Below, piece after piece: positions 29,361 through 43,860 of a stretch of DNA of 55,634 nt (positions are counted from its first letter, which is position 1; the number at the start of each line of letters is the position of its first letter). Source of the DNA: Sphingobium sp. (GTDB taxonomy: Bacteria > Pseudomonadota > Alphaproteobacteria > Sphingomonadales > Sphingomonadaceae); NCBI GenBank assembly GCA_013911745.1, contig JACESO010000003.1:1-55634 (forward strand), given 5' to 3'. The translations under genes were made by a program, and so were the position numbers. The notes beneath the pieces were generated by a model. It did not search any database, was not told the origin of the DNA, and saw nothing but the letters and a program-made list of their open reading frames with translations.

Positions 29361-29600
29361 ATGGAACGCTATCACATCAATCTCTTCAACGACGCGGACA
29401 TTCTGGACGAGGAGGGACAGGAGTTTGTCGACCTCGCCGCCGCGCATGCGGAAGCGATGCGCAGCGCGCGCGAAGTCATTGCCGATCATGTGATGAACGG
29501 CCGGCCGATCGACCTTCGCCACCGCATGGAAATTACCGACAATGCGGGCAAGCTGTTGGATATGATCCGATTCGGCGACGCGATCAGCATCGTGTCGTAA
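29361..29600 (+). CDS. DUF6894 family protein (79 residues)
   Basis: The sequence pattern YHINLFNDADILDEEGQEF, followed by DLAAAHAEAMRSAREV and a C-terminal strand-forming segment (MEITDNAGKLLDMIRFGDAI), matches the small DUF6894 proteins common in Rhizobiales and sphingomonads. The family's function is unknown. The ribosome site is weak (GAAG). A GGAAC at 29328-29332 has no good -10 partner. It lies between divergently oriented Crp/Fnr genes, a neighbourhood in which I recall DUF6894 genes recurring. Confidence 0.75.
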   Translation: MERYHINLFNDADILDEEGQEFVDLAAAHAEAMRSAREVIADHVMNGRPIDLRHRMEITDNAGKLLDMIRFGDAISIVS

Positions 29601-29646
29601 AGCTTATGCCGGCGCAGGTCAGCGCCATTGCGACTGAAGGAGTATC

Positions 29647-30400: not shown

Positions 30401-31408
30401 TTATTCGGCGGCGATGTGGACCGGCGCGATCTGTTCGCAGGGCGCGCCGATCTCCGCGGCGAAGAAGCGGCAGGTGCGCTGCAATCCGTCCTCCAGCGTC
30501 ACGCGCGGCGACCATCCCAGCAGTTCGCGCGCGCGGCTGATGTCCGGCCGGCGACGGCGCGGATCGTCAACGGGCAACGGGCGATGGACGATCCGCGACG
30601 GGGATCCGGTTTCTGCGATGATCCGTTCGGCAAGCTCAACGATGCTATATTCCTCGGGATTGCCGAGGTTGACGGGTGCGAGTTCCGGCAGGTCCGCCTC
30701 CATCAGCGCGATCAGCCCGTCCACCATGTCGGACACATAGCAGAAGCTGCGCGTCTGCGACCCGTCGCCATAGATGGTGATGTCTTCGCCCGAGAGCGCC
30801 TGGCACAGCAGGTTGGATACGACGCGCCCGTCATCGGGATGCATGTTGGGGCCGTAGGTGTTGAAGATGCGCGCCACCCGCACGTCGGCGCGGCCTGAAC
30901 GCGCGAAGTCGAACGCCATGGCTTCGGCCGCGCGCTTGCCTTCGTCATAACAGGCGCGGGGGCCGGTGCAGTTGACCCAGCCGCGATAGTCCTCCCGCTG
31001 CGGATGCGCTTCGGGGTCGCCATAGACTTCGCTCGTGGAGGTCAGCAGGAAGCGCGCGCCGGTCTGTTCGGCAAGGCGCAGCAGATGGTCGGTGCCGACG
31101 ACGCTGGTCAGCATCGTATGTTCGGGGTCCGCCTGATATTGGGGCGGAGAGGCCGCGCAGGCCAGATTGTAGATGCGGCTGATGTCGCGGCGGCGGGCGA
31201 TCGCGTCGGGCAGCGGATCGACGACATCGGCGCGGATGAAGCGGAAATCCGGCTCCGCTTCGAACGGCTGCAGGTTGATCGTGCGCGCGGTCTGCAAATT
31301 GTCGAGGCACAGCACCTCATAGCCGCGATCCAGCAGCGCGCGGCAGAGATGCGACCCGATGAAACCCGCGCCGCCAGCGACCAGTGCGACCTGTTTGCCT
31401 TGCCTCAT
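30401..31408 (-). CDS. NAD-dependent epimerase/dehydratase, UDP-glucuronate decarboxylase-like
   Basis: An ATG at 31441 would overlap the upstream stop, but the codons after it contain a perfect AGGAGG nine to ten bases before the ATG at 31408, so I choose 31408 (335 residues). The extended-SDR motifs are AGGAGFIGSH near the N terminus, the serine in TSTSEVYGDPE, and YDEGK for the Tyr/Lys pair. RIFNTYGPNM and GSQTRSFCYV are characteristic of UDP-xylose synthase. That enzyme makes UDP-xylose from UDP-glucuronate in the cytoplasm. It is the last gene of a seven-gene glycan operon and would supply a pentose donor to the four upstream glycosyltransferases. Confidence 0.83.
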   Translation of the reverse strand: MRQGKQVALVAGGAGFIGSHLCRALLDRGYEVLCLDNLQTARTINLQPFEAEPDFRFIRADVVDPLPDAIARRRDISRIYNLACAASPPQYQADPEHTMLTSVVGTDHLLRLAEQTGARFLLTSTSEVYGDPEAHPQREDYRGWVNCTGPRACYDEGKRAAEAMAFDFARSGRADVRVARIFNTYGPNMHPDDGRVVSNLLCQALSGEDITIYGDGSQTRSFCYVSDMVDGLIALMEADLPELAPVNLGNPEEYSIVELAERIIAETGSPSRIVHRPLPVDDPRRRRPDISRARELLGWSPRVTLEDGLQRTCRFFAAEIGAPCEQIAPVHIAAE

Positions 31409-31437
31409 CCGTTGCGATCCTCCTGTTGCTATGTCGT

Positions 31438-32514
31438 TCATTCTGCCGCCACCGCGCACCGTCCGGCCGCGTCCTGCGCTTCTTCCAGATAGCGTTCGAG
31501 TTCGGCCGCCCGGCAGGCAGCGCTATGGCCGGTCAGGATGCGCTCGCGCGCTGCGGCGCCAACGGCGCTTGCGTCCTCCGCCAGCCACGCGACGATGTCG
31601 TCGCTTCCTTTCGCCAGCAGGATTTCGCTGCCGGGGCGCAGCAGCTCGTCGATGCCGGGCCATATGTCCGACAGGATGGGCGTGCCGCAGGCCGCAGCCT
31701 CGAACAGCCGGACCGAGGGCGACCAGCCCGCCGCGATCATGTCGGCGCGCGTGACGTTCAGCGTGTAGCGCGAGGCGGAATAGAAGGCGGCGTGATCGGC
31801 GGGCGGCAGGTGGTCGATCCGCTCCACATTGGCGGGCCAGTCGATATCGTCGGGATATTGCGGGCCGGCCACGGCGAAGCGTTTCTCCGGCATCCGGCGC
31901 GCGGGATCTATCAGCAGCGCCTCCAGCGTCGGCTGCCGGTCCGGGCTGTAAGTGCCGAGATAGGTGAGATCCCACCTCTTTTCGACGGGCATCGGCCGAT
32001 AGGCGTCGATATCGACCGAGCAATAGAGCGCGCGCGCCATGGGCGATCCATATTCGCGCTCCAGCAGGTCCAGCGTCGGCCCGCCGGTGAAGGAGCAATA
32101 GAGATCATAGCCGGCGATCAGCTCCGCCGTCAGATAGTCGCAGCGCCCCTCGCGGAGGGCAGTCAGCGTGACGGGCGTGTCGATGTCGTAGAAGGCGGTG
32201 ACGCCCTGCGCATGGTCGAGGGCATAATGGCCGATGGCGATCCCGTCCGGCACATAGGAGCCGACGATCACGGCGTCAGCCGCAGCGATCTCCGCCCGCC
32301 ACGCGTCCAGACCGGGGAGGTCGTCATAGAAGGCGAGCCGGCAATAGTCGGGCGCGTCAAGGTCGCGATGCGCCGCATACCAGGGGACGTTTCGTTCGAG
32401 GAACAGGATGTCATGCCCGCGCGCCGCGAAGGCGGACAGCAGCGCGCGGAAGGTGGTGGCATGACCGTTCCCCCAGGAGGAGGAGAGGCTGAGGCCAAGG
32501 ACGACGATCTTCAT
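31438..32514 (-). CDS. CgeB-like glycosyltransferase (1 of 3 in tandem)
   Basis: The 358-residue protein has a GT-B layout. The N-terminal domain opens KIVVLGLSLSSSWGNGHATT and continues RGHDILFLERNVPWY. The C-terminal domain has DLTYLGTYSPDRQ, a YTLNVTRADM segment and the donor-site-like SVRLFEAAACGTPILSD. This matches the DUF3880/CgeB type of glycosyltransferase group 1, enzymes of uncertain donor specificity. Its start overlaps the next gene's stop as ATGA (32511-32514). The N terminus is clearly related to those of the next two genes upstream. Confidence 0.78.
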   Translation of the reverse strand: MKIVVLGLSLSSSWGNGHATTFRALLSAFAARGHDILFLERNVPWYAAHRDLDAPDYCRLAFYDDLPGLDAWRAEIAAADAVIVGSYVPDGIAIGHYALDHAQGVTAFYDIDTPVTLTALREGRCDYLTAELIAGYDLYCSFTGGPTLDLLEREYGSPMARALYCSVDIDAYRPMPVEKRWDLTYLGTYSPDRQPTLEALLIDPARRMPEKRFAVAGPQYPDDIDWPANVERIDHLPPADHAAFYSASRYTLNVTRADMIAAGWSPSVRLFEAAACGTPILSDIWPGIDELLRPGSEILLAKGSDDIVAWLAEDASAVGAAARERILTGHSAACRAAELERYLEEAQDAAGRCAVAAE

Positions 32515-33617
32515 GCGCGCTCCATTTCCGGAAGGTCGGCGGCGCGCGCGGCGGCGGCATCGCGCAGGATGGCATCCACCTGCGCGCCACGCAGCGCATA
32601 GCTATGCTCGCGCAATACCCGGGCCCGCGCCGCCTCTCCGATAGTGCGCGCCCTGTCGGCGGTCAGGGTGGACAGATGATCCGCCACATCCTGCCCGTCG
32701 CGCGCGACCAGCACTTCCTTGTCCGGGGTCAGGAACATCTCTATCCCTTCCCATGCGTCGGTGATGAGGCAGGCGGCCGCGCCCGCCGCTTCGAACACCC
32801 GGGTTGCTGGCGAAAAGCCGATCTGCGCCATGCTGTCGCGCGCGACGTTCAGCACCGCGAGCGGGGTGCAGTTGAACGCATTATGTTCGGCGGTATAGAC
32901 ATGGCCGCGATGGCGGACATTGGCCGGCATCGCCTTGCTCTCCCAGCCATTGCCGCCGATCAGGAACGACCGGTCGGGCAGCAGCGCGGCGGCCTTCAGG
33001 AAATATTCCTCCACCCGCGCCTCCCGGTCGGGCAGGCGGTTGCCCAGGAATGCGAGGTCGCAGGCGAAGCGGGGGTCGGGGGCGACGGGCAAATGGCTGT
33101 CCGGGTCCAGTGCGTTATAGACCGGGATGCAACGACGCGCGCCCATGCCGCAATAGGCGTCCACGACCGGATCGCCGCCGCCATAGGTCAGTACCATGTC
33201 CAGCCCCGGCAGCGCTGCGCGCACCGGATGATCGGGATCGGCGCGCATTTCGTCCAGCGTGGCGGCGGCGTCCACATCCCAGAAGATGCGCAGCGCATGG
33301 GGCGCGGCGCGCCGCATCACGCCGTCCAGCAATTCCGCGTCGAACACGCCGACGCCGCTCGCCTTCACCACGACATCAGCGTCGGCGGCCTCGTCCATGA
33401 CCTTGGTCAGCGCTTCCGGCGTCGCGTCATAGACCACGACCCGCGCCCAGTCCGGCGGATCGATGTCGCGATGCTGCTGACGGTCGAAAGCATCCGGCTC
33501 GTAGAAGCATATCTCATGCCCGCGCGCCGCCAATTGCTTCAGGATGCCGCGATAATAGGTCGCTGCCCCGTTCCAATAGGAGGACAGCAGGCTTGATCCG
33601 TAAAAGGCGATCTTCAT
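32511..33617 (-). CDS. CgeB-like glycosyltransferase (2 of 3 in tandem)
   Basis: I start at ATG 33617 (MKIAFYGSSLLSSYWNG), one base after the previous gene's stop, giving 368 residues; the upstream extension in this frame is a shadow. Motifs parallel those of its neighbour: RGHEICFYEPDAFDRQ, a Rossmann-like centre, CDLAFLGNRLPDRE, and a C-terminal RVFEAAGAAACLITD block that would hold the nucleotide-sugar. HVYTAEHNAFNCTPLAVLN is the equivalent of the acceptor-side loop. It is a GT-B enzyme of the cytoplasm with unknown donor. The tandem position with two relatives suggests that one glycan chain is built stepwise. Confidence 0.78.
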   Translation of the reverse strand: MKIAFYGSSLLSSYWNGAATYYRGILKQLAARGHEICFYEPDAFDRQQHRDIDPPDWARVVVYDATPEALTKVMDEAADADVVVKASGVGVFDAELLDGVMRRAAPHALRIFWDVDAAATLDEMRADPDHPVRAALPGLDMVLTYGGGDPVVDAYCGMGARRCIPVYNALDPDSHLPVAPDPRFACDLAFLGNRLPDREARVEEYFLKAAALLPDRSFLIGGNGWESKAMPANVRHRGHVYTAEHNAFNCTPLAVLNVARDSMAQIGFSPATRVFEAAGAAACLITDAWEGIEMFLTPDKEVLVARDGQDVADHLSTLTADRARTIGEAARARVLREHSYALRGAQVDAILRDAAAARAADLPEMERA

Positions 33618-33618
33618 G

Positions 33619-34734
33619 TCAGGCTCCCACCAGGCTGGCGGGCGTCGGCGCGCCAAGCCCCTCGACTATGTCCAGAAGTTCCCGCGCGCGATGGGCGCAG
33701 CTGTGGCGCGCCCGTACCGTTTCAAGCCCGCTCCGCGTCAGGCTCTCGCGCAATCCTTCGTCCTGCGCGATCGCGCGCAGGTGCCGCACCATCTCCGCGC
33801 CGTCCCGCGCGTAGAGGAAGTCCTCGTCCGGCCGGAACAGCCCTTCGCTGTCGCGCCAGGGTGCGGACACCAGCGGGATGCCGCAGGCCAGCGCCTCGAA
33901 CATGCGGATGGTCGGGATGCCGGGCAGCAGATCGGCATAATAGCGGCGCGGCACATGCACCGTCGCCAGATGCCGCGCAAAGATGGCGGGCGCGGCGGCG
34001 TTGGCCGCCCAGCCATGATAGCGCACGCCATAGCGGTCCAGCGCCGCGCGGGCTTCATCCGGATAGCGCACGCCATAGATGTCGAGCGGCAGGCCCGCCG
34101 CCTCGGCCGGACGGAACAGAAATTCCTCCAGTTCCGCCGTACGTTCCCCGTCGCCCCAATTGCCGATCCATACGATCCCCTCGCGCGGGGCTTCCTGTGC
34201 GGGCGGATGGAAATGGTGAATGTCGGCCGCTTCGTGCCAGGTCCAGACGAGGCTTCCCCAGCCCCAACTGCGATAGACTTCCGACAAGGCCTCGCCGAAC
34301 GCCAGCACGCCGTCATAGCCCGACAGGTCGAAGGCGCGGATAGCGTCCGGATCGGACACGGCGCGATGATGCGTGTCGTGGAAGAGGAGAGTGAAGCGCG
34401 CGCCCTGCGCCCGCATTCGCCCCAGCCGCGCGACCAGCGACGGCTCGTTCCACTCATGCATGATGACGAGATCCGCGCCGTCGGTCAGCGCCTCTACATC
34501 GGCATCCGCCCCATAGCTTATCGTCCGTAATTCAGCATAGGCGGCGCGGAAGGGCGCCAGCCCCGCGTCGCCATGATCGCGGATCAGGTTGGTGAGGCTC
34601 CAGTTTCCCTCCGGCTCCAGCGCGACGACATCATGGCCGAGCGAGCCGAGTTCGCGCAGCACGCCGCGCAGGAAATGCGCATTGCCATGGTTCCAGCAGG
34701 ACAGCAGCGAATGGGTGAAATAGACGATCCTCAT
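33619..34734 (-). CDS. CgeB-like glycosyltransferase (3 of 3 in tandem)
   Basis: The 371-residue protein starts RIVYFTHSLLSCWNHGNAHF, close in pattern to the other two. It contains a histidine-rich LLFHDTHHRAVSD segment, IVWIGNWGDGERT, and the C-terminal RMFEALACGIPLVSAPW block typical of GT-B donor sites. Its ATG overlaps the stop of the GT4 gene (ATGA 34731-34734). Function is inferred as transfer of a sugar to the same glycan as its neighbours. No membrane segment is visible, so it probably works in the cytoplasm or loosely on the membrane. Confidence 0.78.
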   Translation of the reverse strand: MRIVYFTHSLLSCWNHGNAHFLRGVLRELGSLGHDVVALEPEGNWSLTNLIRDHGDAGLAPFRAAYAELRTISYGADADVEALTDGADLVIMHEWNEPSLVARLGRMRAQGARFTLLFHDTHHRAVSDPDAIRAFDLSGYDGVLAFGEALSEVYRSWGWGSLVWTWHEAADIHHFHPPAQEAPREGIVWIGNWGDGERTAELEEFLFRPAEAAGLPLDIYGVRYPDEARAALDRYGVRYHGWAANAAAPAIFARHLATVHVPRRYYADLLPGIPTIRMFEALACGIPLVSAPWRDSEGLFRPDEDFLYARDGAEMVRHLRAIAQDEGLRESLTRSGLETVRARHSCAHRARELLDIVEGLGAPTPASLVGA

Positions 34735-35816
34735 GCCGCCACCCGATCCTTCAGCCGGTCGTAGAGGCCGGCCATCCGGCTCGCCATCGCGCCCGGCGTG
34801 TAGCGCGTCGCGCGCTCCCGCGCCCGCTCGCCGGCCTCGTGACGGGCGGCGCTGTCCTCGATCATCGCCTCGATGGCGTTGGCGAAGCCGCCCGCGTCAC
34901 ATGCCGGTACGAAGGTTGCTGCTCCGTCCCATAGTTCGCGGAAGGTGGGGATGTCCGAGAGGATGAGCGCGCATCCGGCCGACGCTGCTTCCAACACCGC
35001 CAGACCGAAGGGTTCGTAGAGCGCGGCGGACGCGAAGACCGGCCGCGCGCCCAGATGCTGGGCCAGTTCCGCTTCGCCGAGCGATCCCAGCCGGTGCAAG
35101 GCCTGAAAGGCGGGGCCGTCTCCCTGCGGCGAAAACGATGGCCCCGCCGCCTTGAACGGCACCGTCAGCTTCGCTGCCGCGCGATCCAGCGTGGCGACAT
35201 TCTTGCCTTCGTCCCACAATCGCCCGGCGGTAAACGCCTGATCGTGGGGCGTCAGGGAAGGGCAGGGCAGCGCCCGCCCATTATGCACCGGCATGGGGGC
35301 CACGCCATAGATGCGCCGTACGTCCGCTGCGAAGGCGGCACTAGGCGCAACCGTCAGGCTGGCGTTGCGCAGTCCCTTCGCAATCAGCGCCGTGCGCCAT
35401 CCGAAGTCCGTGGGCATCGGTCCCTTTCGCACGGCCTGCCACCAGCTCGCCACGCAGCTGTGCAGCACGGCGACCACCGGGCAGGGGTAGCGGCCGATGC
35501 TGGCGAGCGCGGGCGTATGCAGCTGCACCAGATCGGCGCGCAGGTCGCCGGCCATCTGCGCCAACCGCTCCTCCGCCGCCACGACCTCCGCTGCATCCTC
35601 AGCGATCCAGTCGAGCGGCAGGCCGGTGTCGATCAGGTCCAGATGGGCGATGGACGCCGCCTTCGCGCGCTGCTCCGCTGACGCAGCCGGTCCCATCACC
35701 GCCAGCGTGACCCGGTAATCGAAAGCGCCCAGCGCCTCGGCCAGATCGACCGAATATTGCCACACGCCGCCTACCGCGTCAGTGGTCAGCAGCAGATGCC
35801 GTTCGCCCGCCATCAT
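34731..35816 (-). CDS. glycosyltransferase family 4-like protein
   Basis: The ATG at 35816 begins MMAGERHLLLTTDAVGGVW and overlaps the epimerase stop (ATGA 35813-35816), giving 361 residues. The N-terminal motif TDAVGGVWQYSVDLA is typical of GT4 enzymes. The C-terminal domain has FTAGRLWDEGKN and ASAALYEPFGLAVLEAASAGC, in which the E-x7-E pair (EPFGLAVLE) is the GT4 nucleotide-sugar signature. It is therefore a retaining GT-B enzyme. Among the four glycosyltransferases of the operon it is the only one with clear GT4 hallmarks and could start or extend the chain. Confidence 0.83.
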   Translation of the reverse strand: MMAGERHLLLTTDAVGGVWQYSVDLAEALGAFDYRVTLAVMGPAASAEQRAKAASIAHLDLIDTGLPLDWIAEDAAEVVAAEERLAQMAGDLRADLVQLHTPALASIGRYPCPVVAVLHSCVASWWQAVRKGPMPTDFGWRTALIAKGLRNASLTVAPSAAFAADVRRIYGVAPMPVHNGRALPCPSLTPHDQAFTAGRLWDEGKNVATLDRAAAKLTVPFKAAGPSFSPQGDGPAFQALHRLGSLGEAELAQHLGARPVFASAALYEPFGLAVLEAASAGCALILSDIPTFRELWDGAATFVPACDAGGFANAIEAMIEDSAARHEAGERARERATRYTPGAMASRMAGLYDRLKDRVAA

Positions 35817-36880
35817 GCACGCTCCGCGATGCGCGCGGGCGCAGCCTCGGCGCGCTGCCGCATCAGCCAGTCCGCAAGGTCCGCCACGCCCTGCCGCCAT
35901 GGCTTGCGCGTGCGCGGACCGATCGCGGAATAGAGCGCGCGCGTGTCCGCGACGAAATAGCGCTGGTCGCCCGCGCGCCAGTCGGCCGCCTCGATTTCGA
36001 TGGGATGCCCCAGATAGTCCCCGATATGGCGGATCAGCTGGCGCAGGCTGACGGCATTATCGATGCCGCCGCCAAGGTTGAACACGCGGCCGGGCAAGGC
36101 GTGGATGTTGCGCCAGAGGCTGAGATAGGCGTCCACCGCATCGCCCACATCCAATATGTCGCGAACCTGGAAGCCGTCGCCGTAAAGGGTGATGGGTCGC
36201 CCCTCCAGCGCGCTGATCAGGAAGTGGGCCACCCATCCCTGATCCTCCGTCCCCATCTGCCGCTGGCCGTAGATGCAGCTCATCCGCAGCACGGCGGTCG
36301 GCACGCCGAAGCTGCGGCCATAATCCAGCACATATTGGTCGGCCGCGCCCTTGGAGCAGCCATAGGGCGTGTGGAAATCGAGCGGGCGGGCCTCGCCAAT
36401 GCCATGGGCGGCGATGGCGGCGTCCTGTGGCACATAGCGGTCGCCATCGAGCGCGAAATCGATATCCTCAAGGCCCCCATAGACCTTGTTGGTCGAAGCG
36501 AAGATGACCGGCGGCGGCGTGGCGCAGCGCCGCGCGGCTTCCAGCAGGTTGAAGGTGCCGAGCGCGTTGACGGCAAAGTCGGCGGCGGGATCGGTCAGGC
36601 TGGTCGTCACCGCGACCTGCGCCGCCATGTGGAACACCGCCTTGCACCGGCCGACCGCGTCCTTCAGCGGCGCTGCGTCGCCCATGTCGGCGATCATCGC
36701 CTCGATCCGCTGCCCGTGCCGCTCCTCCAGCCAGCCGAGGTTGCGCTCGACGCCGGGCCGGGCGAGGGAGTCATAGACGATGACGTCATGCCCTTCGCTT
36801 GCCAGCCGGTCGGCGATGTTGCTGCCGATGAAGCCGGCACCGCCGGTCACCAGCACGGGCCGGGGATCGCCCGCGCTCAC
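35813..36880 (-). CDS. NAD-dependent sugar epimerase (CDP-paratose 2-epimerase-like SDR)
   Basis: I start at GTG 36880, which overlaps the stop of the upstream gene as GTGA, giving 355 residues; the longer open frame upstream is a shadow of that gene. Motifs: TGGAGFIGSN for NAD binding at the N terminus, HMAAQVAVTTSL, ASTNKVYG and YGCSKGAADQYV with the catalytic Tyr and Lys. RMSCIYGQRQMGTEDQGWVAHF is like that of CDP-tyvelose/paratose epimerases. It most likely inverts a hydroxyl on a nucleotide-activated sugar. The exact sugar cannot be read from the sequence. Confidence 0.83.
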   Translation of the reverse strand: MSAGDPRPVLVTGGAGFIGSNIADRLASEGHDVIVYDSLARPGVERNLGWLEERHGQRIEAMIADMGDAAPLKDAVGRCKAVFHMAAQVAVTTSLTDPAADFAVNALGTFNLLEAARRCATPPPVIFASTNKVYGGLEDIDFALDGDRYVPQDAAIAAHGIGEARPLDFHTPYGCSKGAADQYVLDYGRSFGVPTAVLRMSCIYGQRQMGTEDQGWVAHFLISALEGRPITLYGDGFQVRDILDVGDAVDAYLSLWRNIHALPGRVFNLGGGIDNAVSLRQLIRHIGDYLGHPIEIEAADWRAGDQRYFVADTRALYSAIGPRTRKPWRQGVADLADWLMRQRAEAAPARIAERA

Positions 36881-37989
36881 GCCACCAGCCCGCGCGCTTC
36901 GAGTTCGGCCCGCGCCTCCGCCACCCGATCCTCGGCGGTCTGCTCGGCCACCCATTCCGCCAGTTCGGCAAGACCTTCGCTGAAATCCTGCCGCGCTTCG
37001 AAACCCAGCGTCCTTGCCGCCTCGCTCGTGTCGCAGAAGCAATGGCGGATGTCGCCGGTGCGCGCCTTGCCCACGATTTCGGGATCGACATCGTTGCGGC
37101 CCATCGCGGCGGCGAGCGCCTGCGCTACCTGCGTCACCGAACGGTCCTGGCCTGATCCGATGTTGAAGGTGCCGCCTGCCGCCTGCGGCAGTTCCAGCGC
37201 GTCGGCGAAGGCGCGGGCGACGTCGCTCACATGCACGAAGTCGCGGCGCTGCTCCCCATCCTCGAAGATCATCGGCTTTTGCCCGTTCAGCAGCCGGGAG
37301 GCGAAGATCGCCAGCACGCCGGTATAGGGATTGGACAGTGCCTGGCCCGGCCCGTAGACGTTGAACAGGCGCAGGCACACGCCCTCCATGCCGTAGGGCG
37401 CGGTCATGATATGGGTGGTGCGTTCCTGCACATATTTGTTGAGGGCGTAGATGGAAGCGAGGTTGGGCCGCTTCCATTCGGGCGTCGCGACTGGGGTGAG
37501 CGGGCGGCCCTGCGCGTCGGTCGGTTCCCAATTCTTCTGCCCGTCGCGGATCGTCCCGCGCTCGGCATCCTGCACCAGCGCGCCGTCCGCATCGCGATAG
37601 AGGCCCTCGCCATAGATGCTCATGGACGACGCGGTGACGACGCGGCGCACCGGCTTTGCGATCAGCTGCTCGAACAGGACGGCGGTGCCGACATCGTTCA
37701 CAGAGGTGTAGCGTTCCACCTCATACATGGACTGGCCGACGCCCACTTCGGCGGCGAGGTGGACGACGCTGTCGATGCCCTGCAACGCCCGTTCGACCAG
37801 CAGCGCGTTGCGCACGTCGCCCTGGATCAGCTCGACCTCGTTCGGCAGGTCTTCGGGGCGTTCGCCCTTGCCGTGGACCTGCTCGATCAGGCTGTCGAGC
37901 ACGCGCACCTCATGGCCGCGCTCCAGCAGTTCCTGACATACCCTGCGGCCGATGAAGCCCGCGCCCCCGGTTACGAGTATCTTCTCCAC
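36877..37989 (-). CDS. NAD-dependent epimerase/dehydratase
   Basis: Two in-frame GTG codons are possible; AAGGGA is six bases before GTG 37989 but almost touches GTG 37995, so I choose 37989 (370 residues). The protein is an extended SDR: VTGGAGFIGRRVCQELL, HLAAEVGVGQSMYE, TASSMSIYGEG and YALNKYVQE with the Tyr/Lys pair, then RLFNVYGPGQ. It contains a longer insertion near residues 130-165. It is the first gene of the leftward glycan operon and lies next to a stress-type promoter candidate (38071-38096). It supplies a modified nucleotide sugar; which one is unknown. Confidence 0.84.
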   Translation of the reverse strand: MEKILVTGGAGFIGRRVCQELLERGHEVRVLDSLIEQVHGKGERPEDLPNEVELIQGDVRNALLVERALQGIDSVVHLAAEVGVGQSMYEVERYTSVNDVGTAVLFEQLIAKPVRRVVTASSMSIYGEGLYRDADGALVQDAERGTIRDGQKNWEPTDAQGRPLTPVATPEWKRPNLASIYALNKYVQERTTHIMTAPYGMEGVCLRLFNVYGPGQALSNPYTGVLAIFASRLLNGQKPMIFEDGEQRRDFVHVSDVARAFADALELPQAAGGTFNIGSGQDRSVTQVAQALAAAMGRNDVDPEIVGKARTGDIRHCFCDTSEAARTLGFEARQDFSEGLAELAEWVAEQTAEDRVAEARAELEARGLVA

Positions 37990-38070
37990 GCCCACTCCCT
38001 TTGCTGATGGGGATGCTCATGCGGCCGAGGAAGGCATGATGGTCATGCACAGCCGAGCATATGGCGGAGG

Positions 38071-38096
38071 AACATCATCTTCTTCCGCTCGGTTCC
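38071..38096 (-). promoter_or_regulatory. EcfG-type stress promoter candidate (GGAAC-N17-TGTT), leftward glycan operon
   Basis: On the minus strand GGAAC (38096-38092) is followed after 17 bases by TGTT (38074-38071), one base from consensus. The first codon of the epimerase is about 80 bases downstream. The mirror-image promoter at 38258-38283 has the same spacing and the same -10 variant. Confidence 0.45.
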
Positions 38097-38257
38097 GGGG
38101 GGATGATGAAGAAGAACATCGCATGTGTAATGCGGCAAGGATGGCGTAATCAGGATAAGAAGGAATAACATATATTGAAAGCTTCAGTTGATTAATGATG
38201 CAGGTTATTTTTGTTTCGTTATAGTTGCGCAAGGGTTTGATATTGCGTTTCGCAGCT

Positions 38258-38283
38258 GGAACTATGCGTGGCGTGACGATGTT
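38258..38283 (+). promoter_or_regulatory. EcfG-type stress promoter candidate (GGAAC-N17-TGTT), rightward operon
   Basis: GGAAC at 38258-38262 and TGTT at 38280-38283 are 17 bases apart. A start site near 38290 would leave almost no leader before the ATG at 38295 or 38301, which fits the absence of a Shine-Dalgarno there. Confidence 0.45.
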
Positions 38284-38294
38284 GAACGGCATCT

Positions 38295-38933
38295 ATGTTG
38301 ATGCTGTCTCCAGAAAATCGCAGTGCTGTCCTTTCGGGAACGACGTGCCTGCATCTCGTGCGCCACGGCGCGCATGGCGATGTCGGACGCCGGCTGAGCG
38401 GCCGGGCGGAGGCTGGCGGCCTTAGCTTGATCGGTAGCGGGCAGGCGACGCGCGCGGCCATCGCCTTGGGCAGGCTTGATGCCGTCCATGCCAGTCCGCG
38501 CCGGCGCACGCTTGAGACCGCATCCATCATCGCGGCGCAGCACGGCCTGACGGTCGAAGAAGCGGACGCGCTCGACGAGATCGATTTCGGCGCCTGGAAC
38601 GGCGCGTCCTTCGATGCGCTGGCCGACGATCCCGCCTGGCGCGCATGGAACAGCAACCGGGCCACGGCCCCGACCCCCGGAGGAGAAACCATGGTTCAGG
38701 CAGTCAGGCGGGCGGTGGCTCATCTGGAAGGATTGGTGCGGCAGGGCGCGGGCAGGCAAGGCAACATCGCCTGCGTCACCCATTGCGACATCATTCGCGG
38801 CGTCGTTGCGCATTATATGGGGCTCAGCCTCGACAACATCCTGTGCTTCGATGTCGATCCCGGATCGATCACCACGCTGCGCTTCGCACCGGGCGAAACC
38901 CGCGTCACGCGCATCAACATGGTGCCGGCATGA
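38295..38933 (+). CDS. histidine phosphatase family protein (phosphoglycerate mutase-like)
   Basis: The 212-residue protein has the branch-1 histidine phosphatase motifs: LVRHG with the phospho-accepting His near residue 24, ASPRRRTLETA, the acidic EIDFGAWNG, PGGET, and VTHCDIIRGV with the second catalytic His. Such enzymes remove phosphate from sugars, alpha-ribazole phosphate or other small molecules. Here it opens an operon with inositol-3-phosphate synthase, so a phosphatase acting on inositol phosphate or another sugar phosphate is an attractive inference. ATG 38295 or 38301 could start it; neither has a ribosome site, consistent with a near-leaderless mRNA. Its stop overlaps the next ATG (ATGA 38930-38933). 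Confidence 0.83.
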   Translation: MLMLSPENRSAVLSGTTCLHLVRHGAHGDVGRRLSGRAEAGGLSLIGSGQATRAAIALGRLDAVHASPRRRTLETASIIAAQHGLTVEEADALDEIDFGAWNGASFDALADDPAWRAWNSNRATAPTPGGETMVQAVRRAVAHLEGLVRQGAGRQGNIACVTHCDIIRGVVAHYMGLSLDNILCFDVDPGSITTLRFAPGETRVTRINMVPA

Positions 38934-39739
38934 GGATGGCGACATCCGCGACCAAGGAGGACGGCGCGTTGCGCCGCGCGATCGAGGCGCTTGGCCCCTG
39001 GTTTCAGAATTTGCGGATCGGCGGGATCGAAACCGCGCCCGATCATTTCCTGGGCGACTATCCCGCCTTCAAGTTCGCGCGGTTCGAGCCGGCCCTGCCG
39101 CAGGACTTGACCGGCAAGACCGTGCTCGACATCGGCTGCAATGCCGGCTTCTACTCGCTGGAGATGAAGCGGCGCGGCGCGGCGGAGGTGCTCGGCATCG
39201 ACACGGACGACCGCTATCTGGCGCAGGCGCGTTTCGCCGCCGATGCGCTCGGCTTTTCCGACATGCGCTTCGAAAAGCTGTCGGTCTATGATGTCGGGGC
39301 GCTGGGCCGGCGGTTCGATCTCGTCATCTTCATGGGCGTACTCTACCATCTGCGCCACCCGCTGCTGGCGCTGGACCTGATCCGCGAGCATGTGGCGGGC
39401 GACCTGATGCTGTTCCAGACGATGCAGCGCGGGCCGGCAGATGTCCTCCAGGTGCCGGAGGACGCGCCCTTCCATGTCGCCGCTACGGACCAGCCGCCCA
39501 CCTATTTCGACAATCCCGCCTATCCGCGGATGCACTTCATCGAACGGCGCTACGCCGGCGACTGGACAAACTGGTGGGCCCCTAATGCCGCCTGTTCGCA
39601 GGCGATGCTCCGCGCCGCCGGCTTCTCGATCGAAGCGCAGCCGGAGGAGGAAGTCTATCTCTGCCGCGTCGCTCCTGTCCCCTATGCGGACTGGATGGGC
39701 GAGCCGGCGGTCTATCCCGCAAGAGGAAGCAAGCCATGA
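38930..39739 (+). CDS. SAM-dependent methyltransferase (TIGR04290/CmoB-like type)
   Basis: The ATG at 38930 is coupled to the phosphatase stop; an open frame further upstream is a shadow. The 269-residue protein has motif I VLDIGCNAG at residues 65-73, the acidic ribose contact in LGIDTDDRY, and DLVIFMGVLYHLRHP, closely resembling the CmoB/DUF1698 group. The C-terminal half has an NWWAPNAACSQAMLRAAGF segment typical of the TIGR04290 family, which I recall only from sugar gene clusters of unknown product. It probably methylates a hydroxyl of the glycan precursor. It overlaps the following glycosidase-like gene by four bases. Confidence 0.83.
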   Translation: MRMATSATKEDGALRRAIEALGPWFQNLRIGGIETAPDHFLGDYPAFKFARFEPALPQDLTGKTVLDIGCNAGFYSLEMKRRGAAEVLGIDTDDRYLAQARFAADALGFSDMRFEKLSVYDVGALGRRFDLVIFMGVLYHLRHPLLALDLIREHVAGDLMLFQTMQRGPADVLQVPEDAPFHVAATDQPPTYFDNPAYPRMHFIERRYAGDWTNWWAPNAACSQAMLRAAGFSIEAQPEEEVYLCRVAPVPYADWMGEPAVYPARGSKP

Positions 39740-40659
39740 TCGAAGCCGCGATGATCTGGAACGAACCCAACAACAAGTCGCATTGGGATCCGGAGGTCGA
39801 TCCCGACTGGTCGCTCTATGCCGACATGGTGCTCCGCGCCGGCGGGGCGATCCGTGCCGTCAATCCGGCCGTCACCCGCGTGCTGGGCGGCATGTCGCCG
39901 ATCGATCCGCACTGGGTCAACCGGATGCGGGATCATGGCGCGCTTGACGCCGTCGACGTGGTGGCTGTCCATGGCTTTCCGCTCGACTGGAACCTGTGGC
40001 CGATCCACGCCTGGCCCGACAAGATCGCGGAGATCGAGGCGGTTGTGCCCGACAAGCCGGTATGGGTGACCGAAGTCGGCGTCGGCTCCTTCGGCGCGGA
40101 GGAGGTGCAGGTCTTCGGCGTCAATCGCACCGCCGAATTGCTGATCGGCCGGGTGCCGCGCATCTACTGGTACAGCCTCTATGACCTGCCGCAGGAGTGG
40201 GGCGCGACCACCCGCCATCGCGAGGCGGAAGGCTCCAGCTATTATCGCCATTTCTACATGGGCCTCATCCGCGAGGACGGCACGCCCAAGCCGGCGCTGG
40301 ACGATTATGCGAAGGTCGCGGACCGGATGGGCCTGATGCAATGGTTCCATTTCGAGGATCCGCGCCTGGACGATGCCGTCGCCTGGATGAAGCGGCTGGG
40401 CGTCCGGCACCTGCGCACCGGCCTCAGCTGGGCGGACAGTTTCCGCCCCAACGCCATCGACTGGTTCGACCGGCAGATGGAGGCGCTTGAGCCTTTCGAC
40501 GTCACCGTCACCTTCTGCTTCACGCCCGAACATCTGGGCATCGCCCCGCACCACAGCAGCGCCGTGCATGATCCGCAGGCCTTCGCCGATTTCTGCGCCT
40601 GGATGATCGAACGCTACGCCCCGGCGCAGGCTGCGCTGCCGGTCGCCCGCACCGCCTGA
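39736..40659 (+). CDS. glycosidase-like TIM-barrel protein with apparently permuted strand order
   Basis: The 307-residue protein opens directly at IWNEPNN (Glu10), the acid/base motif found on strand 4 of clan GH-A barrels such as GH39 or GH5. Next come VVAVHGF with His79 (strand 6), WVTEVGVGS with Glu113 (nucleophile position, strand 7) and IYWYSLYD (strand 8). After residue 195 come segments that look like strands 1-3: QWFHFED, RHLRTGLSWAD and VTVTFCFTPEH, then a DFCAWMIERY helix that normally leads into strand 4. This is the order of a circularly permuted barrel. The ATG is coupled to the methyltransferase stop and no missing N-terminal part exists upstream. No signal peptide is present, so it acts in the cytoplasm. 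Confidence 0.75.
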   Translation: MIEAAMIWNEPNNKSHWDPEVDPDWSLYADMVLRAGGAIRAVNPAVTRVLGGMSPIDPHWVNRMRDHGALDAVDVVAVHGFPLDWNLWPIHAWPDKIAEIEAVVPDKPVWVTEVGVGSFGAEEVQVFGVNRTAELLIGRVPRIYWYSLYDLPQEWGATTRHREAEGSSYYRHFYMGLIREDGTPKPALDDYAKVADRMGLMQWFHFEDPRLDDAVAWMKRLGVRHLRTGLSWADSFRPNAIDWFDRQMEALEPFDVTVTFCFTPEHLGIAPHHSSAVHDPQAFADFCAWMIERYAPAQAALPVARTA

Positions 40660-40670
40660 CGGAGACTATC

Positions 40671-41792
40671 ATGCCCCAATCCCCCATCAACATCGGCATC
40701 GTCGGGGTGGGCAATTGCGCCAGCTCGCTGGTGCAGGGCCTCACCCATTATCGCGCGGAGAGCAACGATCATCACGGGTTGATGCATTGGGAGATTGGCG
40801 GCTATCGGCCCTGCGACATCCGCGTCGCCGCCGCCTGGGACATCGACCGGCGCAAGGTCGGGCGCGACGTCGCCGAAGCCATCTTCGCCAAGCCCAACTG
40901 CACCCAGACCTTCTGCCCCGATCCGGCGGCATCGGGCACGATCGTCGAGATGGGCCGCATCCTGGACGGCGTCGCGGACCATATGGCGGATCATCCCGAC
41001 GACCGCACCTTCCTGCCCGCCGAAGCGGCGGAGGCGACCCGCAAGAGCGTCGTCGCCCGACTGCGCGCCGCCAAGGTCGACGTGCTCGTCAATTACCTGC
41101 CGGTCGGATCGCAGCAGGCGACCGAATTCTACGCCGACTGCGCGCTGGAGGCGGGCGTTGCCTTCGTCAACGCCATCCCCGTTTTCATTGCCAGCGATCC
41201 CGGCTGGGCGCAGCGCTTCGCGGCGGCCGGCGTGCCGATCATCGGCGACGACATCAAGGCGCAGCTCGGCGCGACGATCGTGCATCGCGTGCTCACCGAC
41301 CTGTTCGCCAAGCGCGGCGTGAAGCTCGACCGCACCTATCAGCTCAACACTGGCGGCAACACCGACTTCCTGAACATGGCGAACCGCAAGCGCCTCAAAT
41401 CCAAGAAGATATCCAAGACCGAAGCGGTCCAGTCCGTTGCTGAAACCCGGCTGGACGACGACAATATCCATGTCGGCCCGTCCGATTATGTCGCCTGGCA
41501 GAATGACAACAAGGTCTGCTTCCTGCGCATGGAAGGGCAATTGTTCGGCGGCGTGCCGATGAACCTGGAACTGCGCCTGTCGGTGGAGGACAGCCCCAAT
41601 TCGGCCGGGGTCGCGATCGACATGATCCGCTGCGCGAAGCTGGCGCTCGACCGGCGGATCGGCGGCCCGATCCATCCCGCCGCCGCCTATTTCTGCAAGC
41701 ATCCCCCGCAGCAGATGACCGACGATCAGGCGCATGAGGCGCTGGAAGCGTTCATCCATGACGGCGCGCGCGTGGCGGTGGCGGCGGAATGA
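40671..41792 (+). CDS. ino1: inositol-3-phosphate synthase (myo-inositol-1-phosphate synthase)
   Basis: The 373-residue length and sequence fit the short bacterial (actinobacterial-type) enzyme. The NAD motif is GIVGVGNCASSLVQG at residues 9-23. Further conserved blocks are VLVNYLPVGSQQAT, FVNAIPVFIAS, GDDIKAQLGAT, QLNTGGNTDF and KSKKISKT, which carry the catalytic lysines and substrate contacts. It converts glucose 6-phosphate to inositol 3-phosphate in the cytoplasm. No phosphatidylinositol synthase or other inositol-lipid gene is adjacent. Its partners are a phosphatase, a methyltransferase and two oxidoreductases, suggesting that inositol or an inosose derivative is being made for the glycan. 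GGAG precedes the ATG, and the stop overlaps the next start. Confidence 0.92.
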   Translation: MPQSPINIGIVGVGNCASSLVQGLTHYRAESNDHHGLMHWEIGGYRPCDIRVAAAWDIDRRKVGRDVAEAIFAKPNCTQTFCPDPAASGTIVEMGRILDGVADHMADHPDDRTFLPAEAAEATRKSVVARLRAAKVDVLVNYLPVGSQQATEFYADCALEAGVAFVNAIPVFIASDPGWAQRFAAAGVPIIGDDIKAQLGATIVHRVLTDLFAKRGVKLDRTYQLNTGGNTDFLNMANRKRLKSKKISKTEAVQSVAETRLDDDNIHVGPSDYVAWQNDNKVCFLRMEGQLFGGVPMNLELRLSVEDSPNSAGVAIDMIRCAKLALDRRIGGPIHPAAAYFCKHPPQQMTDDQAHEALEAFIHDGARVAVAAE

Positions 41793-42793
41793 GCGAACTC
41801 CTAGAACCCGCCGCCCGTCCGACGACGCAGGCGAAGACGATGCGCGCCGCCACAGTGACTGCGCCAGGCACGGTCCGCATCGACCATGTCCCGCTGCCTG
41901 AGCCGGGGCCGGGTCAGGTGCGCATCCGGCTGGAAGGCTGCGGCGTCTGCGCGTCCAACCTGACACCCTGGGCCGGCCCGGAATGGCAGCACTATCCGCT
42001 CGATCCCGGCGCGCTCGGCCATGAAGGATGGGGCGTGGTCGATGCCGTGGGAGACGGCGTGACATCTGTCCAGGTCGGTGTCCGCGTCGCCGCTCTGTCC
42101 TATGCCAGCTATGCCGATTACGACATCGCGCAGGAACAGGCGGTGGTGCCGCTGCCGCCAGAACTAGATGCCATGCCTTTTCCGGGTGAGCCCTTGGGCT
42201 GCGCGTTCAACATCTTCCGCCGATCTGACATCCGCGCGGGGCAGACGGTGGCGATCATCGGCATCGGTTTCCTGGGTGCGATCCTGACGCGACTGGCGAC
42301 GGACGCCGGCGCGCGCGTCATCGCCATCTCGCGCCGCGAATCCTCGCTCGCGCTCGCCCGGGACTATGGCGCGGCCGAAACGATTGCCATGGACGATCAT
42401 AACCGCATCATAGAACAGGTGAGCGCGCTGACCGAAGGCCGGCTATGCGATCGCGTCATAGAGGCGGTGGGCAAGCAATGGCCGCTCGATCTCGCCGCCG
42501 AACTCACGGCCGAACGGGGCCGCCTCGTCATCGCGGGCTATCATCAGGACGGCCCCCGGCAGGTCAATATGTGGCTGTGGAACTGGCGCGGCATCGACGT
42601 CATCAATGCGCACGAGCGCGACCCGATGATCTATGCGCAGGGCGTGCGCGAAGCGGTGGAGGCGGTCGCTTCGGGCCGGCTCGACCCGGCACCGCTCTAT
42701 ACCCACCGCTACCCGCTCGAACGGCTGGGCGAGGCGCTGGACGCCACGCGCGACAAGCCCGACCATTTCGTCAAGGCGATCATCACCCTATGA
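41789..42793 (+). CDS. zinc-binding medium-chain dehydrogenase lacking the structural-zinc lobe
   Basis: The 334-residue MDR protein has CGVCASNL and GHEGWGVV, which hold the usual catalytic-zinc Cys and His, and the Rossmann motif IIGIGFLGA. The four-cysteine structural zinc lobe is absent; the segment RVAALSYASYADYDIAQ stands in its place. The closing block QVNMWLWNWRGIDVINAHERDP resembles dehydrogenases of sugar and inositol pathways. It would oxidise or reduce a secondary alcohol of a sugar or cyclitol in the cytoplasm. It overlaps ino1 and the following Gfo/Idh gene by four bases each, so the three are expressed together. Confidence 0.83.
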   Translation: MSELLEPAARPTTQAKTMRAATVTAPGTVRIDHVPLPEPGPGQVRIRLEGCGVCASNLTPWAGPEWQHYPLDPGALGHEGWGVVDAVGDGVTSVQVGVRVAALSYASYADYDIAQEQAVVPLPPELDAMPFPGEPLGCAFNIFRRSDIRAGQTVAIIGIGFLGAILTRLATDAGARVIAISRRESSLALARDYGAAETIAMDDHNRIIEQVSALTEGRLCDRVIEAVGKQWPLDLAAELTAERGRLVIAGYHQDGPRQVNMWLWNWRGIDVINAHERDPMIYAQGVREAVEAVASGRLDPAPLYTHRYPLERLGEALDATRDKPDHFVKAIITL

Positions 42794-43860
42794 CCCTGCT
42801 CACCGCCGCCCCCGCGCCCTCCGTCGATCTCGATCGTCCCCGTATCGGCTTCCTCGGCGTCGGCTGGATCGGCCGCAACCGCATGGAAGCGATGCTGGCG
42901 AGCGGCCGGATCGAAGTGGCGGCCATTGCCGATGCGGTGCCCGGCAATAGCGAGGAAGCGGCGCGTCTCGCACCTGATGCGGTCCTGTGCGACAGCCTTG
43001 ACGCGCTGCTCGACCAGCATCTCGACGGCCTCGTCATCGCGACGCCCAGCGCGCTTCACGCCGATCAGTCGATCCGGGCGCTGGAACGAGGCGTCCCCGT
43101 CTTCTGCCAGAAACCGCTTGGCCGTAATCTGGCGGAAGTGAAGGCGGTGATCGCCGCCGCCCGGTCCGTCGACCGGCTGCTGGGCGTCGACCTTTCCTAT
43201 CGTGGCACCGCCGGCATGCGCGCGATCCGGGAGCGGGTGCGGGCGGGCGAACTCGGGCACATCCATGCCATCGACCTCGTCTTCCACAACGCTTACGGCC
43301 CCGACAAGCCGTGGTTTTACGATCCGGCGCTGTCGGGCGGCGGATGCATGATGGACCTGGCCGTCCACCTCATCGACCTCGCGCTCTGGACGCTCGACTT
43401 TCCGGCCGTTGAAAGCATCAGCGCCGACCTCTTCGCGAAGGGGCGTCCACTGTCCGATCGCGCAACGCAGGTTGAGGATCTGGGCTTCGCCACGCTGCGC
43501 CTGGCGGGCGGGACGATGGTGCGGGTCGCCGCCTCCTGGCACCTCCACGCCGGGCAGGACGCGGTGATCGCGGCGGACTTTCACGGCGACCGCGCCGGAG
43601 CGGGCTTCCGCAATGTCGGCGGTTCCTTCTACGATTTCGAGTCGAGCCTCTTCCACGGAACGGCGCGGGAGCAGCTGGCTGCACCGGGCGATGCATGGGG
43701 CGGGCAGATGGCGGCGCAATGGGCCGAACGGCTGACTGCTTCGCCCGGCTTCGATCCGGCCTGCGAACGGCTGGCCGATGTCGCCGCCGTGCTGGACGGC
43801 ATCTATCGCGCCGCCGGTCCAAGCCAGTCGAACAACCTGCCCAGCCGCCCGCGCGAGTAG
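42790..43860 (+). CDS. Gfo/Idh/MocA family oxidoreductase
   Basis: The ATG at 42790 overlaps the preceding stop (ATGA 42790-42793) and gives 356 residues. The N-terminal Rossmann domain has FLGVGWIGRNRM, IATPSALHAD and CQKPLGRN, a variant of the family's EKP motif with Gln in place of Glu. The C-terminal domain has GGGCMMDLAVHLIDL, which carries the conserved Asp and His. Family members oxidise sugars, inositols or their nucleotide derivatives with NAD(P). Next to inositol-phosphate synthase an inositol or inosose substrate is plausible. The last 58 bases overlap the convergent FrhB-like gene. Confidence 0.87.
   Translation: MTLLTAAPAPSVDLDRPRIGFLGVGWIGRNRMEAMLASGRIEVAAIADAVPGNSEEAARLAPDAVLCDSLDALLDQHLDGLVIATPSALHADQSIRALERGVPVFCQKPLGRNLAEVKAVIAAARSVDRLLGVDLSYRGTAGMRAIRERVRAGELGHIHAIDLVFHNAYGPDKPWFYDPALSGGGCMMDLAVHLIDLALWTLDFPAVESISADLFAKGRPLSDRATQVEDLGFATLRLAGGTMVRVAASWHLHAGQDAVIAADFHGDRAGAGFRNVGGSFYDFESSLFHGTAREQLAAPGDAWGGQMAAQWAERLTASPGFDPACERLADVAAVLDGIYRAAGPSQSNNLPSRPRE

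What the first reader, a model, noticed from the sequence alone, without database searches (positions are those of the whole stretch)
39736..40659. Glycosidase-like protein that appears to be a circularly permuted TIM barrel
In clan GH-A glycosidases (GH39, GH5 and relatives) the NEP acid/base motif lies on strand 4, after about 120-150 residues of strands 1-3, and the catalytic Glu follows on strand 7. Here IWNEPNN is at residues 7-13, followed by H79 (strand 6), TEVG with Glu113 (strand 7) and YWYSLYD (strand 8). The remaining residues 200-295 then look like strands 1-3: QWFHFED, RHLRTGLSW, VTFCFTPEH and a closing helix ending IERY, which is the sequence that normally leads into strand 4. 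The gene start is fixed by an ATGA overlap, so this is not a truncated gene with a lost beginning. I know of no described family with this order.
Basis: partly seen in the sequence, partly recalled or inferred. Interest (0 to 1): 0.75.

Follow-up and report, generated by a model that had tools for sequence, protein, structure and literature searches.

The report
Naturally circularly permuted barrel glycosidase
This bacterial gene encodes a sugar-cleaving-type enzyme whose eight-part barrel is wired in a rotated order, starting at part four and ending with parts one to three, and it appears to have taken over the job of a normally ordered relative in a stress-linked sugar pathway.

Summary
In detail: ORF 39736-40659 encodes 307 aa with WNEPNN at residues 8-13, its start overlapping the upstream methyltransferase stop (NTGA in 77 of 80 relatives). 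Sequence strongly supports the permutation. A profile of 64 normally ordered relatives matches residues 4-186 (143 bits) and 198-295 (81 bits) in swapped order; the window protein and all 120 listed homologues show this, and rotation at residue 196 gives one collinear match of 226 bits. Seven sequences match solved PslG at 6.6e-8 in two swapped stretches, and at 8e-12 in one stretch once rotated. The permuted form is one clade. Normally ordered relatives sit in a largely shared gene cluster, fused to a sugar-nucleotide dehydrogenase. In one genus five genomes carry both forms: the normal copy lost its acid/base motif in 5 of 5, the permuted copy is intact in 5 of 5, which suggests takeover. 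Six full-text searches showed no described permutation inside a clan GH-A barrel; GH70 (clan GH-H) is the precedent.

The parts
39736..40659 (+). Circularly permuted glycosidase gene, 307 aa
   Evidence: the window protein and the 120 listed homologues have the same swapped order
39736..40296 (+). First half of the protein, residues 1-187: equivalent to barrel units 4-8 of normally ordered relatives
   Evidence: profile positions 106-282 on residues 4-186, 143.3 bits
40297..40326 (+). Short new link (residues 188-197) joining the old C-terminus to the old N-terminus
   Evidence: unmatched stretch between the two profile matches; rotation scan peaks at 193-196
40327..40620 (+). Second half, residues 198-295: equivalent to barrel units 1-3
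   Evidence: profile positions 2-101, 81.1 bits
39763..39765 (+). Glu10 of WNEPNN, predicted acid/base
   Evidence: invariant in A2; aligned with the NEP of normal relatives and with PslG
40072..40074 (+). Glu113 of WVTEVG, predicted nucleophile
   Evidence: invariant in A2; aligned with WITETG
39736..39739 (+). ATGA start-stop overlap that fixes the gene start
   Evidence: NTGA in 77 of 80 relatives
38930..39739 (+). TIGR04290 family methyltransferase, upstream partner; its own start overlaps the stop of the phosphatase gene (ATGA)
   Evidence: 368.6 bits, cutoff 300; start read
38295..38933 (+). Histidine phosphatase family protein
   Evidence: PF00300, 1.5e-38
40671..41792 (+). Inositol-3-phosphate synthase-like protein
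   Evidence: PF01658 126 bits; TIGR03450 447 bits, below its cutoff 638
41789..42793 (+). Zinc alcohol dehydrogenase
   Evidence: PF00107/PF08240
42790..43860 (+). Gfo/Idh/MocA-type dehydrogenase, inositol dehydrogenase-like
   Evidence: TIGR04380 100.6 bits, below its cutoff 355; start read
36877..37995 (-). SDR1, sugar-nucleotide epimerase/dehydratase type
   Evidence: PF01370; present in both kinds of cluster
35813..36880 (-). SDR2, free-standing here (GTGA overlap with SDR1); in unpermuted clusters it carries the normal glycosidase domain at its N-terminus
   Evidence: start read
30401..35810 (-). Four glycosyltransferase-like genes and a UDP-glucuronate decarboxylase-like gene of the same cluster
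   Evidence: similar to Rhizobium etli cluster genes; so annotated in the matching Sphingobium cluster, though the Rhizobium copy of the last gene is annotated dTDP-glucose 4,6-dehydratase
38258..38283 (+). EcfG-type promoter-like site upstream of the phosphatase-methyltransferase-glycosidase operon
   Evidence: compare the Fr1 consensus GGAAC-N17-20-GTT (PMC6599016, passages)
38071..38096 (-). EcfG-type promoter-like site upstream of SDR1

Best explanation
The gene encodes a complete clan GH-A-type (beta/alpha)8 glycosidase whose chain has been circularly permuted. It starts just before strand 4 (NEP acid/base), runs through strand 7 (Glu113) and strand 8, passes a link of about ten residues, and ends with strands 1-3. 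Both the new break (between helix 3 and strand 4) and the new link (between helix 8 and strand 1) fall in alpha-beta turns, which in TIM barrels lie on the face away from the active site, so the catalytic centre at the other end should be intact (inference from general TIM-barrel anatomy). Shown here by sequence: the swapped order, a single clade, conservation of the catalytic residues, and a gene cluster largely shared with normally ordered relatives. Inferred: the barrel closes; catalysis is the retaining two-Glu mechanism, with Glu10 as acid/base and Glu113 as nucleophile; the enzyme is cytosolic (the catalytic motif starts at residue 8, leaving no room for a signal peptide); it trims or transfers a sugar on an intermediate of a glycoside, perhaps inositol-containing, made under the EcfG general stress response; and it has taken over the role of the normal glycosidase domain that relatives carry fused to SDR2.
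For: Swapped two-part match in the window protein and all 120 listed homologues; reciprocal match in 64 of 64 normal relatives; rotation scan peak at residue 196 with 226.3 bits. PslG: the same seven sequences give 6.6e-8 in two swapped stretches (13.3 and 20.8 bits) in native order and 8e-12 in one stretch over 25-304 after rotation; the single window sequence goes from 0.0035 to 3.1e-7, one stretch over 27-303. hhalign to normal relatives, same seven sequences: native 177 columns, E 7.6e-40; rotated 281 columns, 4.6e-59. Controls: six normal proteins score best at or near their own termini; 500 shuffles of the relocated half reach at most 4.2 bits. Start fixed by NTGA in 77 of 80. One clade, support 100/100. 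Takeover: SDR1-SDR2 gap median -24 bp in 68 permuted loci, against 834-987 bp in six of seven normal loci; in five genomes with both forms the normal copy lost the NEP motif in 5 of 5 and the permuted copy is intact in 5 of 5, while the normal copy is intact in 9 of 9 genomes where only it was found. EcfG-type motif in 37 of 76 upstream regions against a shuffled mean of 0.68.
Against: No structure was predicted or solved. No activity, substrate or product is known. The permuted clade sits on a long stem (2.35 changes per column), so its ancestor is not resolved and it need not derive from the SDR2-fused form. G484 carries both forms and the visible part of its normal copy keeps the nucleophile Glu (the contig end hides the rest), so takeover need not be complete everywhere. 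The inositol synthase gene is near the glycosidase in only 36 of 80 loci and the phosphatase in 61 of 80 (some loci are cut short), which weakens the inositol reading. The 76 upstream regions come from related loci of both cluster kinds, and 39 lack the motif as I wrote it. After rotation the first part also matches an unrelated-looking putative lipase, 3bzw (1.9e-4 with one sequence; 0.033 with the profile), which I did not explain.
Confidence: 0.88

Rival explanations
1. A truncated glycosidase that lost strands 1-3, with an unrelated C-terminal tail.
For: Pfam sees only the strand 4-7 part (PF11790 on residues 3-123).
Against: The tail is itself the missing half: 81 bits to profile positions 2-101, and found in all 120 listed homologues; motifs LRTGLSWAD and FTPEH align with the normal LRTHLSWAEY and YTPPS.
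Confidence: 0.01
2. The two halves belong to two different barrels, for example a domain-swapped dimer in which residues 198-295 complete the barrel of a partner chain.
For: Sequence order cannot exclude it; the link of about ten residues was not modelled.
Against: TIM-barrel termini normally lie side by side (general knowledge), so a ten-residue link should be enough for closure within one chain.
Confidence: 0.06
3. The permuted protein is a correctly folded barrel but no longer a hydrolase; it binds a sugar or acts as a transglycosidase.
For: It sits in what looks like a biosynthetic cluster with four glycosyltransferases and sugar-nucleotide enzymes, an odd place for a degradative enzyme; its normal counterpart is fused to a dehydrogenase.
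Against: Both catalytic Glu and the strand-6 His are invariant in the 45-row alignment, unlike in the decayed normal copies. This speaks against a mere binder, not against a transglycosidase.
Confidence: 0.35
4. The permuted gene is a paralogue with its own role, and the decay of the normal domain in one genus is a coincidence.
For: Long stem branch; among normal proteins held, the best scores to the permuted profile belong to free-standing proteins from the search that named Tepidisphaeraceae, not to SDR2-fused alphaproteobacterial ones.
Against: Both forms occur with largely the same SDR1, SDR2, glycosyltransferase, UDP-sugar and TIGR04290 genes; of the 39 carriers among 82 genomes, 32 have only the permuted form, 2 only the normal form, and the 5 with both have a decayed normal copy. 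The 5 are one genus, so this may be one event.
Confidence: 0.25

Closest known systems
PslG (PDB 4zn2, 5bx9; its place in GH39 and clan GH-A is recalled)
   Same: Closest solved relative by sequence; its chain order matches the rotated protein collinearly; NEP and second Glu align.
   Different: Normal strand order. That PslG acts on the Psl polysaccharide of Pseudomonas is recalled, not from a call.
Unpermuted glycosidase domain fused in front of SDR2 (e.g. L010/L134; Rhizobium etli CIAT 652 RHECIAT_PC0000295, annotated nucleoside diphosphate epimerase); many relatives are named 'CDP-paratose 2-epimerase'
   Same: Halves 33% (32 of 96) and 39% (65 of 167) identical to P0122, same catalytic motifs, largely the same gene cluster.
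   Different: Normal strand order; fused to the dehydrogenase; P0122 matches no glycosidase family of Pfam at E 1.
GH70 glucansucrases and GtfB enzymes (clan GH-H)
   Same: A natural circular permutation of a glycosidase (beta/alpha)8 barrel, with non-permuted relatives in the same family (GtfC, GtfD): PMC9732880, passages seen.
   Different: Different clan; alpha-glucan-active multidomain enzymes.
Transaldolase versus class I aldolases
   Same: Recalled example of a natural permutation of an alpha/beta barrel.
   Different: Not a glycosidase; recalled only, the papers listed were not opened.
MalS, GH13_19
   Same: Reported to have circularly permutated domains (PMC10223318, start of abstract in the listing).
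   Different: Alpha-amylase of GH13, not clan GH-A.

Membership tests
Clan GH-A type glycosidase | NEP acid/base motif at strand 4 and catalytic Glu at strand 7, about 100 residues on (definition recalled) | tested here: met
   E10 and E113 invariant in 45 rows, aligned with both Glu of normal relatives and with PslG
Clan GH-A type glycosidase | Canonical chain order, strands 1-8 | tested here: not met
   Order is 4-8 then 1-3; met only after rotation
Clan GH-A type glycosidase | (beta/alpha)8 barrel fold | not testable with these tools
Clan GH-A type glycosidase | Retaining hydrolysis of a glycoside | not testable with these tools
   Needs an enzyme assay
GH39 (Pfam PF01229) | Score above the gathering cutoff of 26 bits | tested here: not met
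   12.6 bits; 14.6 after rotation
Pfam PF11790 Glyco_hydro_cc | Score above the gathering cutoff of 21 bits | tested here: met
   25.1 bits on residues 3-123; 28.7 after rotation; 44 of 45 A2 members match at E 0.01
NCBIfam families | Any model at E 0.01 | tested here: not met
   0 families
GH70 | Pfam match to a GH70 or GH13 family | tested here: not met
   None listed at E 1; only the principle of permutation is shared
EcfG regulon gene cluster | EcfG-type promoter upstream | tested here: met
   Two sites in the window; 37 of 76 regions of the set against a shuffled mean of 0.68, maximum 3 in 50 rounds. With the published spacing 46 of 76, no shuffle control
EcfG regulon gene cluster | Expression depends on EcfG | not tested
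   The Fr1 study names an EcfG-dependent Zn-dehydrogenase and glycosyltransferases (PMC6599016, passages), but I could not tie them to this cluster

The most novel reading that the evidence does not exclude
This is the first circular permutation found inside a clan GH-A barrel. Living genomes still show the takeover in steps: normal domain alone; both forms, with the normal domain catalytically decayed but kept on its dehydrogenase; and permuted form alone, with the old domain gone from the dehydrogenase.
Probability: 0.6. Interest if true: 0.8.

Novelty: new variant of a known kind. Interest (0 to 1): 0.7.

Why it matters
Clan GH-A is called the largest glycosidase clan (abstract start of PMC8447715 in the listing). 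A natural permutant that is common (528 loci in the GTDB genome collection encode a relative of the query; the 80 kept are all permuted), with a normally ordered counterpart in what looks like the same pathway, makes it possible to ask directly what a permutation costs or gains in folding, stability and catalysis. It also explains why Pfam sees only half of this enzyme and why sources name it vaguely ('glycosyl hydrolase', 'beta-xylosidase'). The surrounding cluster is an uncharacterised, probably stress-controlled sugar pathway.

Tried and rejected
Truncated gene: rejected, since the missing half is present at the other end. Chance similarity of the relocated half: rejected by 500 shuffles, best 4.2 bits. 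Rotation gain due to a different choice of rows: my first comparison set a 45-row native profile against a 7-row rotated one, which was not like for like; I repeated it with the same seven sequences in native order and with the single sequence, and the gain remains, though smaller for the profile (6.6e-8 to 8e-12). Duplicated intermediate (two barrels in tandem): looked for in all 357 proteins held, none found: 121 swapped, 236 with one match. Those 357 are the listed best 120 of three searches plus two translated queries, so absence is weak evidence. Ancestor of the permuted clade: the careful tree puts it on one long branch with no supported sister; its bootstrap had not fully settled.

Structure prediction and hence fold search: not possible. 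TIGR04290 in print: 0 papers. PslG with circular permutation: 0 papers. Searches for the pathway in print gave no listed paper that I could tie to this cluster; of those listed only PMC6599016 was opened, and only passages of it were seen. Genome searches covered the window's phylum only, so the permuted form in other phyla was not looked for by genome, apart from the collection scan, of which 80 of 528 loci were kept.

Flaws in my own calls: the reference for the GT4 gene was translated partly out of frame, so that gene is found there through its Rhizobium relative. One search failed on a file name and was redone. In one search one sequence was given on the wrong strand; one search is the corrected alignment and A4 was not used. 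The regions are related to each other, so the shuffle count is not a probability.

Full report
What is there. The ORF at 39736-40659 (+) encodes 307 aa, starts with an ATG that overlaps the stop of the upstream TIGR04290-family methyltransferase gene by four bases (ATGA), and has WNEPNN at residues 8-13. Pfam recognises only residues 3-123, as PF11790 (25.1 bits, cutoff 21), and GH39 weakly (12.6 bits, cutoff 26). Homologues are very many: the search scored its full 8000 candidates and listed 120, which are 302-336 aa long and 85-93% identical; those with a source name are from sphingomonads. In the GTDB genome collection 528 stretches encode a relative, of which 80 were kept.

Is the start right? 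In the 80 kept loci the methyltransferase lies directly upstream in 77 and was not found in 3, and the glycosidase start codon reads NTGA in 77 (34 ATGA, 35 GTGA, 8 TTGA). The NEP-first order is therefore not a misplaced start.

The permutation. A search from that domain gave 229 proteins, 120 listed. 63 of these 120 cover the domain, and with the query they made a 64-row profile of 294 positions. This profile hits the window protein twice, in swapped order: positions 106-282 on residues 4-186 (143.3 bits) and 2-101 on residues 198-295 (81.1 bits). All 121 proteins tested (the window protein and the 120 listed homologues) show the same, and all 64 normal ones show the mirror image with the permuted profile. 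Cutting and rejoining the window protein at every third residue gives a smooth peak at residue 196, where one stretch of 226.3 bits covers positions 2-282. Six normal proteins treated in the same way score best at or near their own termini, and 500 shuffles of the relocated half reach at most 4.2 bits. By profile-profile comparison the same seven permuted sequences align with the normal family over 177 columns in native order (E 7.6e-40) and over 281 columns after rotation (4.6e-59).

An outside yardstick. Among solved structures the nearest by sequence is PslG. The normal family matches it collinearly (profile 19-272 to chain 29-306, E about 9e-5). A 45-row permuted profile in native order matches it in two swapped stretches, 201-296 to 25-130 (5.2 bits) and 4-154 to 133-301 (21.5 bits), E 1.2e-5. 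Seven diverse permuted sequences in native order give 6.6e-8, again in two swapped stretches (13.3 and 20.8 bits); rotated, the same seven give 8e-12 in one stretch, 6-269 to 25-304. The window sequence alone goes from 0.0035 to 3.1e-7 in one stretch, 8-269 to 27-303. This does not depend on my normal-order profile. The rotated sequence also matches a putative lipase, 3bzw, over residues 5-113 (1.9e-4, 0.033), which I left unexplained.

Active site. In the 45-row permuted alignment N9, E10, P11, H79, E113 and R227 are invariant. They align with NEP, the strand-6 His, the TET/TEA Glu and the LRT Arg of the normal family. Residues from both halves are conserved, as expected if they meet in one site. 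The break (before strand 4) and the link (helix 8 to strand 1) both lie in alpha-beta turns, which in TIM barrels are on the face opposite the active site (general knowledge).

Distribution and history. Of 108 loci examined by profile, 100 are permuted, 7 normal and 1 cut by a contig end. Some are the same gene twice: L004/L132 and L009/L133, and L001 is the window. In 385 genomes of the class, 14 carry the family: 6 permuted only, 6 normal only, 2 both. In 398 genomes of the phylum, 14 carry it, all in the window's class: 12 permuted, 2 normal. In 119 genomes of the window's family, 19 carry it and all 19 are permuted. These orders were read from the match tables. The named carriers of the permuted form that I looked at are Alphaproteobacteria (taxonomy lines; other names judged from general knowledge). 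Normal forms are wider: names given by sources include Coleofasciculus, Myxococcales, Acidobacteria, Flavobacterium and Tepidisphaeraceae. The tree of 96 rows (25 permuted, rotated; 71 normal) puts the permuted ones on one side of a branch with support 100/100 and length 2.35; the bootstrap had not quite settled. One origin fits; the sister group is unresolved.

Takeover in the same pathway. Where enough flank is held, both kinds of cluster largely share SDR1, SDR2, four glycosyltransferases, a UDP-glucuronate decarboxylase-like gene and the TIGR04290 methyltransferase; not every locus shows every gene. A TIGR04295-like radical SAM gene is in 11 of the 20 stretches but in 0 of the 80 loci. In normal clusters the glycosidase domain is fused in front of SDR2, and no inositol synthase or histidine phosphatase was seen in the roughly 16-29 kb held (7 loci). 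In permuted clusters SDR2 is free: the distance from SDR1 to SDR2 has a median of -24 bp and a maximum of 284 in 68 loci, against 834-987 bp in six normal loci and 4350 in L123, which has another gene order. In the order of genome G619, 39 of 82 genomes carry the family: 32 permuted only, 2 normal only, 5 both, the 5 being all genomes of one genus in that search. In those 5 the normal domain has lost the NEP motif (5 of 5), the strand-6 His (5 of 5) and the nucleophile (4 of 5), though it keeps the Arg; the permuted copy of the same 5 genomes keeps WNEPNN, HGFP, TE/SE and LRTGLSW in 5 of 5 (G619, the other four). In the 9 genomes in which only the normal form was found, it is intact in 9 of 9, and also on the Rhizobium etli plasmid, whose other replicons I did not search. 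Two further weak matches in G718 and G719 were not examined. Against a simple story, G484 has both forms, and the visible part of its normal copy keeps the nucleophile. The 5 genomes are one genus and may reflect one event.

What it may do. There is no room for a signal peptide in front of the catalytic motif, and the normal form is fused to a dehydrogenase, so the enzyme is probably cytosolic. The cluster looks biosynthetic. Inositol synthase, a phosphatase, a methyltransferase and inositol-dehydrogenase-like genes suggest a methylated or oxidised inositol glycoside, but within the kept flanks the synthase is near the gene in only 36 of 80 loci and the phosphatase in 61. The region upstream of SDR1 carries EcfG-type sites in 37 of 76 loci of both cluster kinds (shuffled mean 0.68, maximum 3 of 50 rounds); with the spacing published for Sphingomonas melonis Fr1 the count is 46 of 76, without a shuffle control. 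In the window one site faces each operon. The consensus used was recalled and then compared with passages of PMC6599016. The pathway is thus probably part of the general stress response. Whether the enzyme hydrolyses or transfers is open.

Known or new. Circularly permuted glycosidase barrels are known in GH70, clan GH-H (PMC9732880, passages; others in the listing). For clan GH-A I saw none in the full-text searches; the listings were capped at 25 papers, and most subscription papers are outside that library. I therefore call it a new variant of a known kind.

Noticed in passing
window 37996-38294: EcfG-type promoter-like sites on both strands between SDR1 and the histidine phosphatase gene; such sites lie upstream of SDR1 in 37 of 76 loci.
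   Followed up: partly
L121 about 9860-10690; L137, L138, L139, L149: Catalytically decayed normal glycosidase domain still fused to the dehydrogenase in five genomes of one genus.
   Followed up: yes
L094, L121-L128, L131, L133: A TIGR04295-like B12-type radical SAM gene lies in these clusters but was not matched in the window, L091, L092, L093 or L134, nor in the 80 loci.
   Followed up: no
window 43803-46255 (-): FrhB-like and polysaccharide pyruvyl transferase-like genes next to the cluster; the same pair adjoins the permuted gene in Sinorhizobium medicae (L092) and is found in 16 of 80 genome loci.
   Followed up: partly
window 27564-30393: Three Crp/Fnr-like regulator ORFs in a row beside the cluster (27564-28295 -, 28505-29143 -, 29647-30393 +), judged by eye from their sequences; a Crp/Fnr regulator is annotated at the same end of the Sphingobium cluster.
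   Followed up: no
P0243-P0357: Large group of mostly free-standing normal-order relatives, several named as from Tepidisphaeraceae, many labelled 'CDP-paratose 2-epimerase' by one source.
   Followed up: partly
query residues 196-296 plus link, PDB 3bzw: The rotated protein matches a putative lipase over its first 113 residues (1.9e-4); not explained.
   Followed up: no
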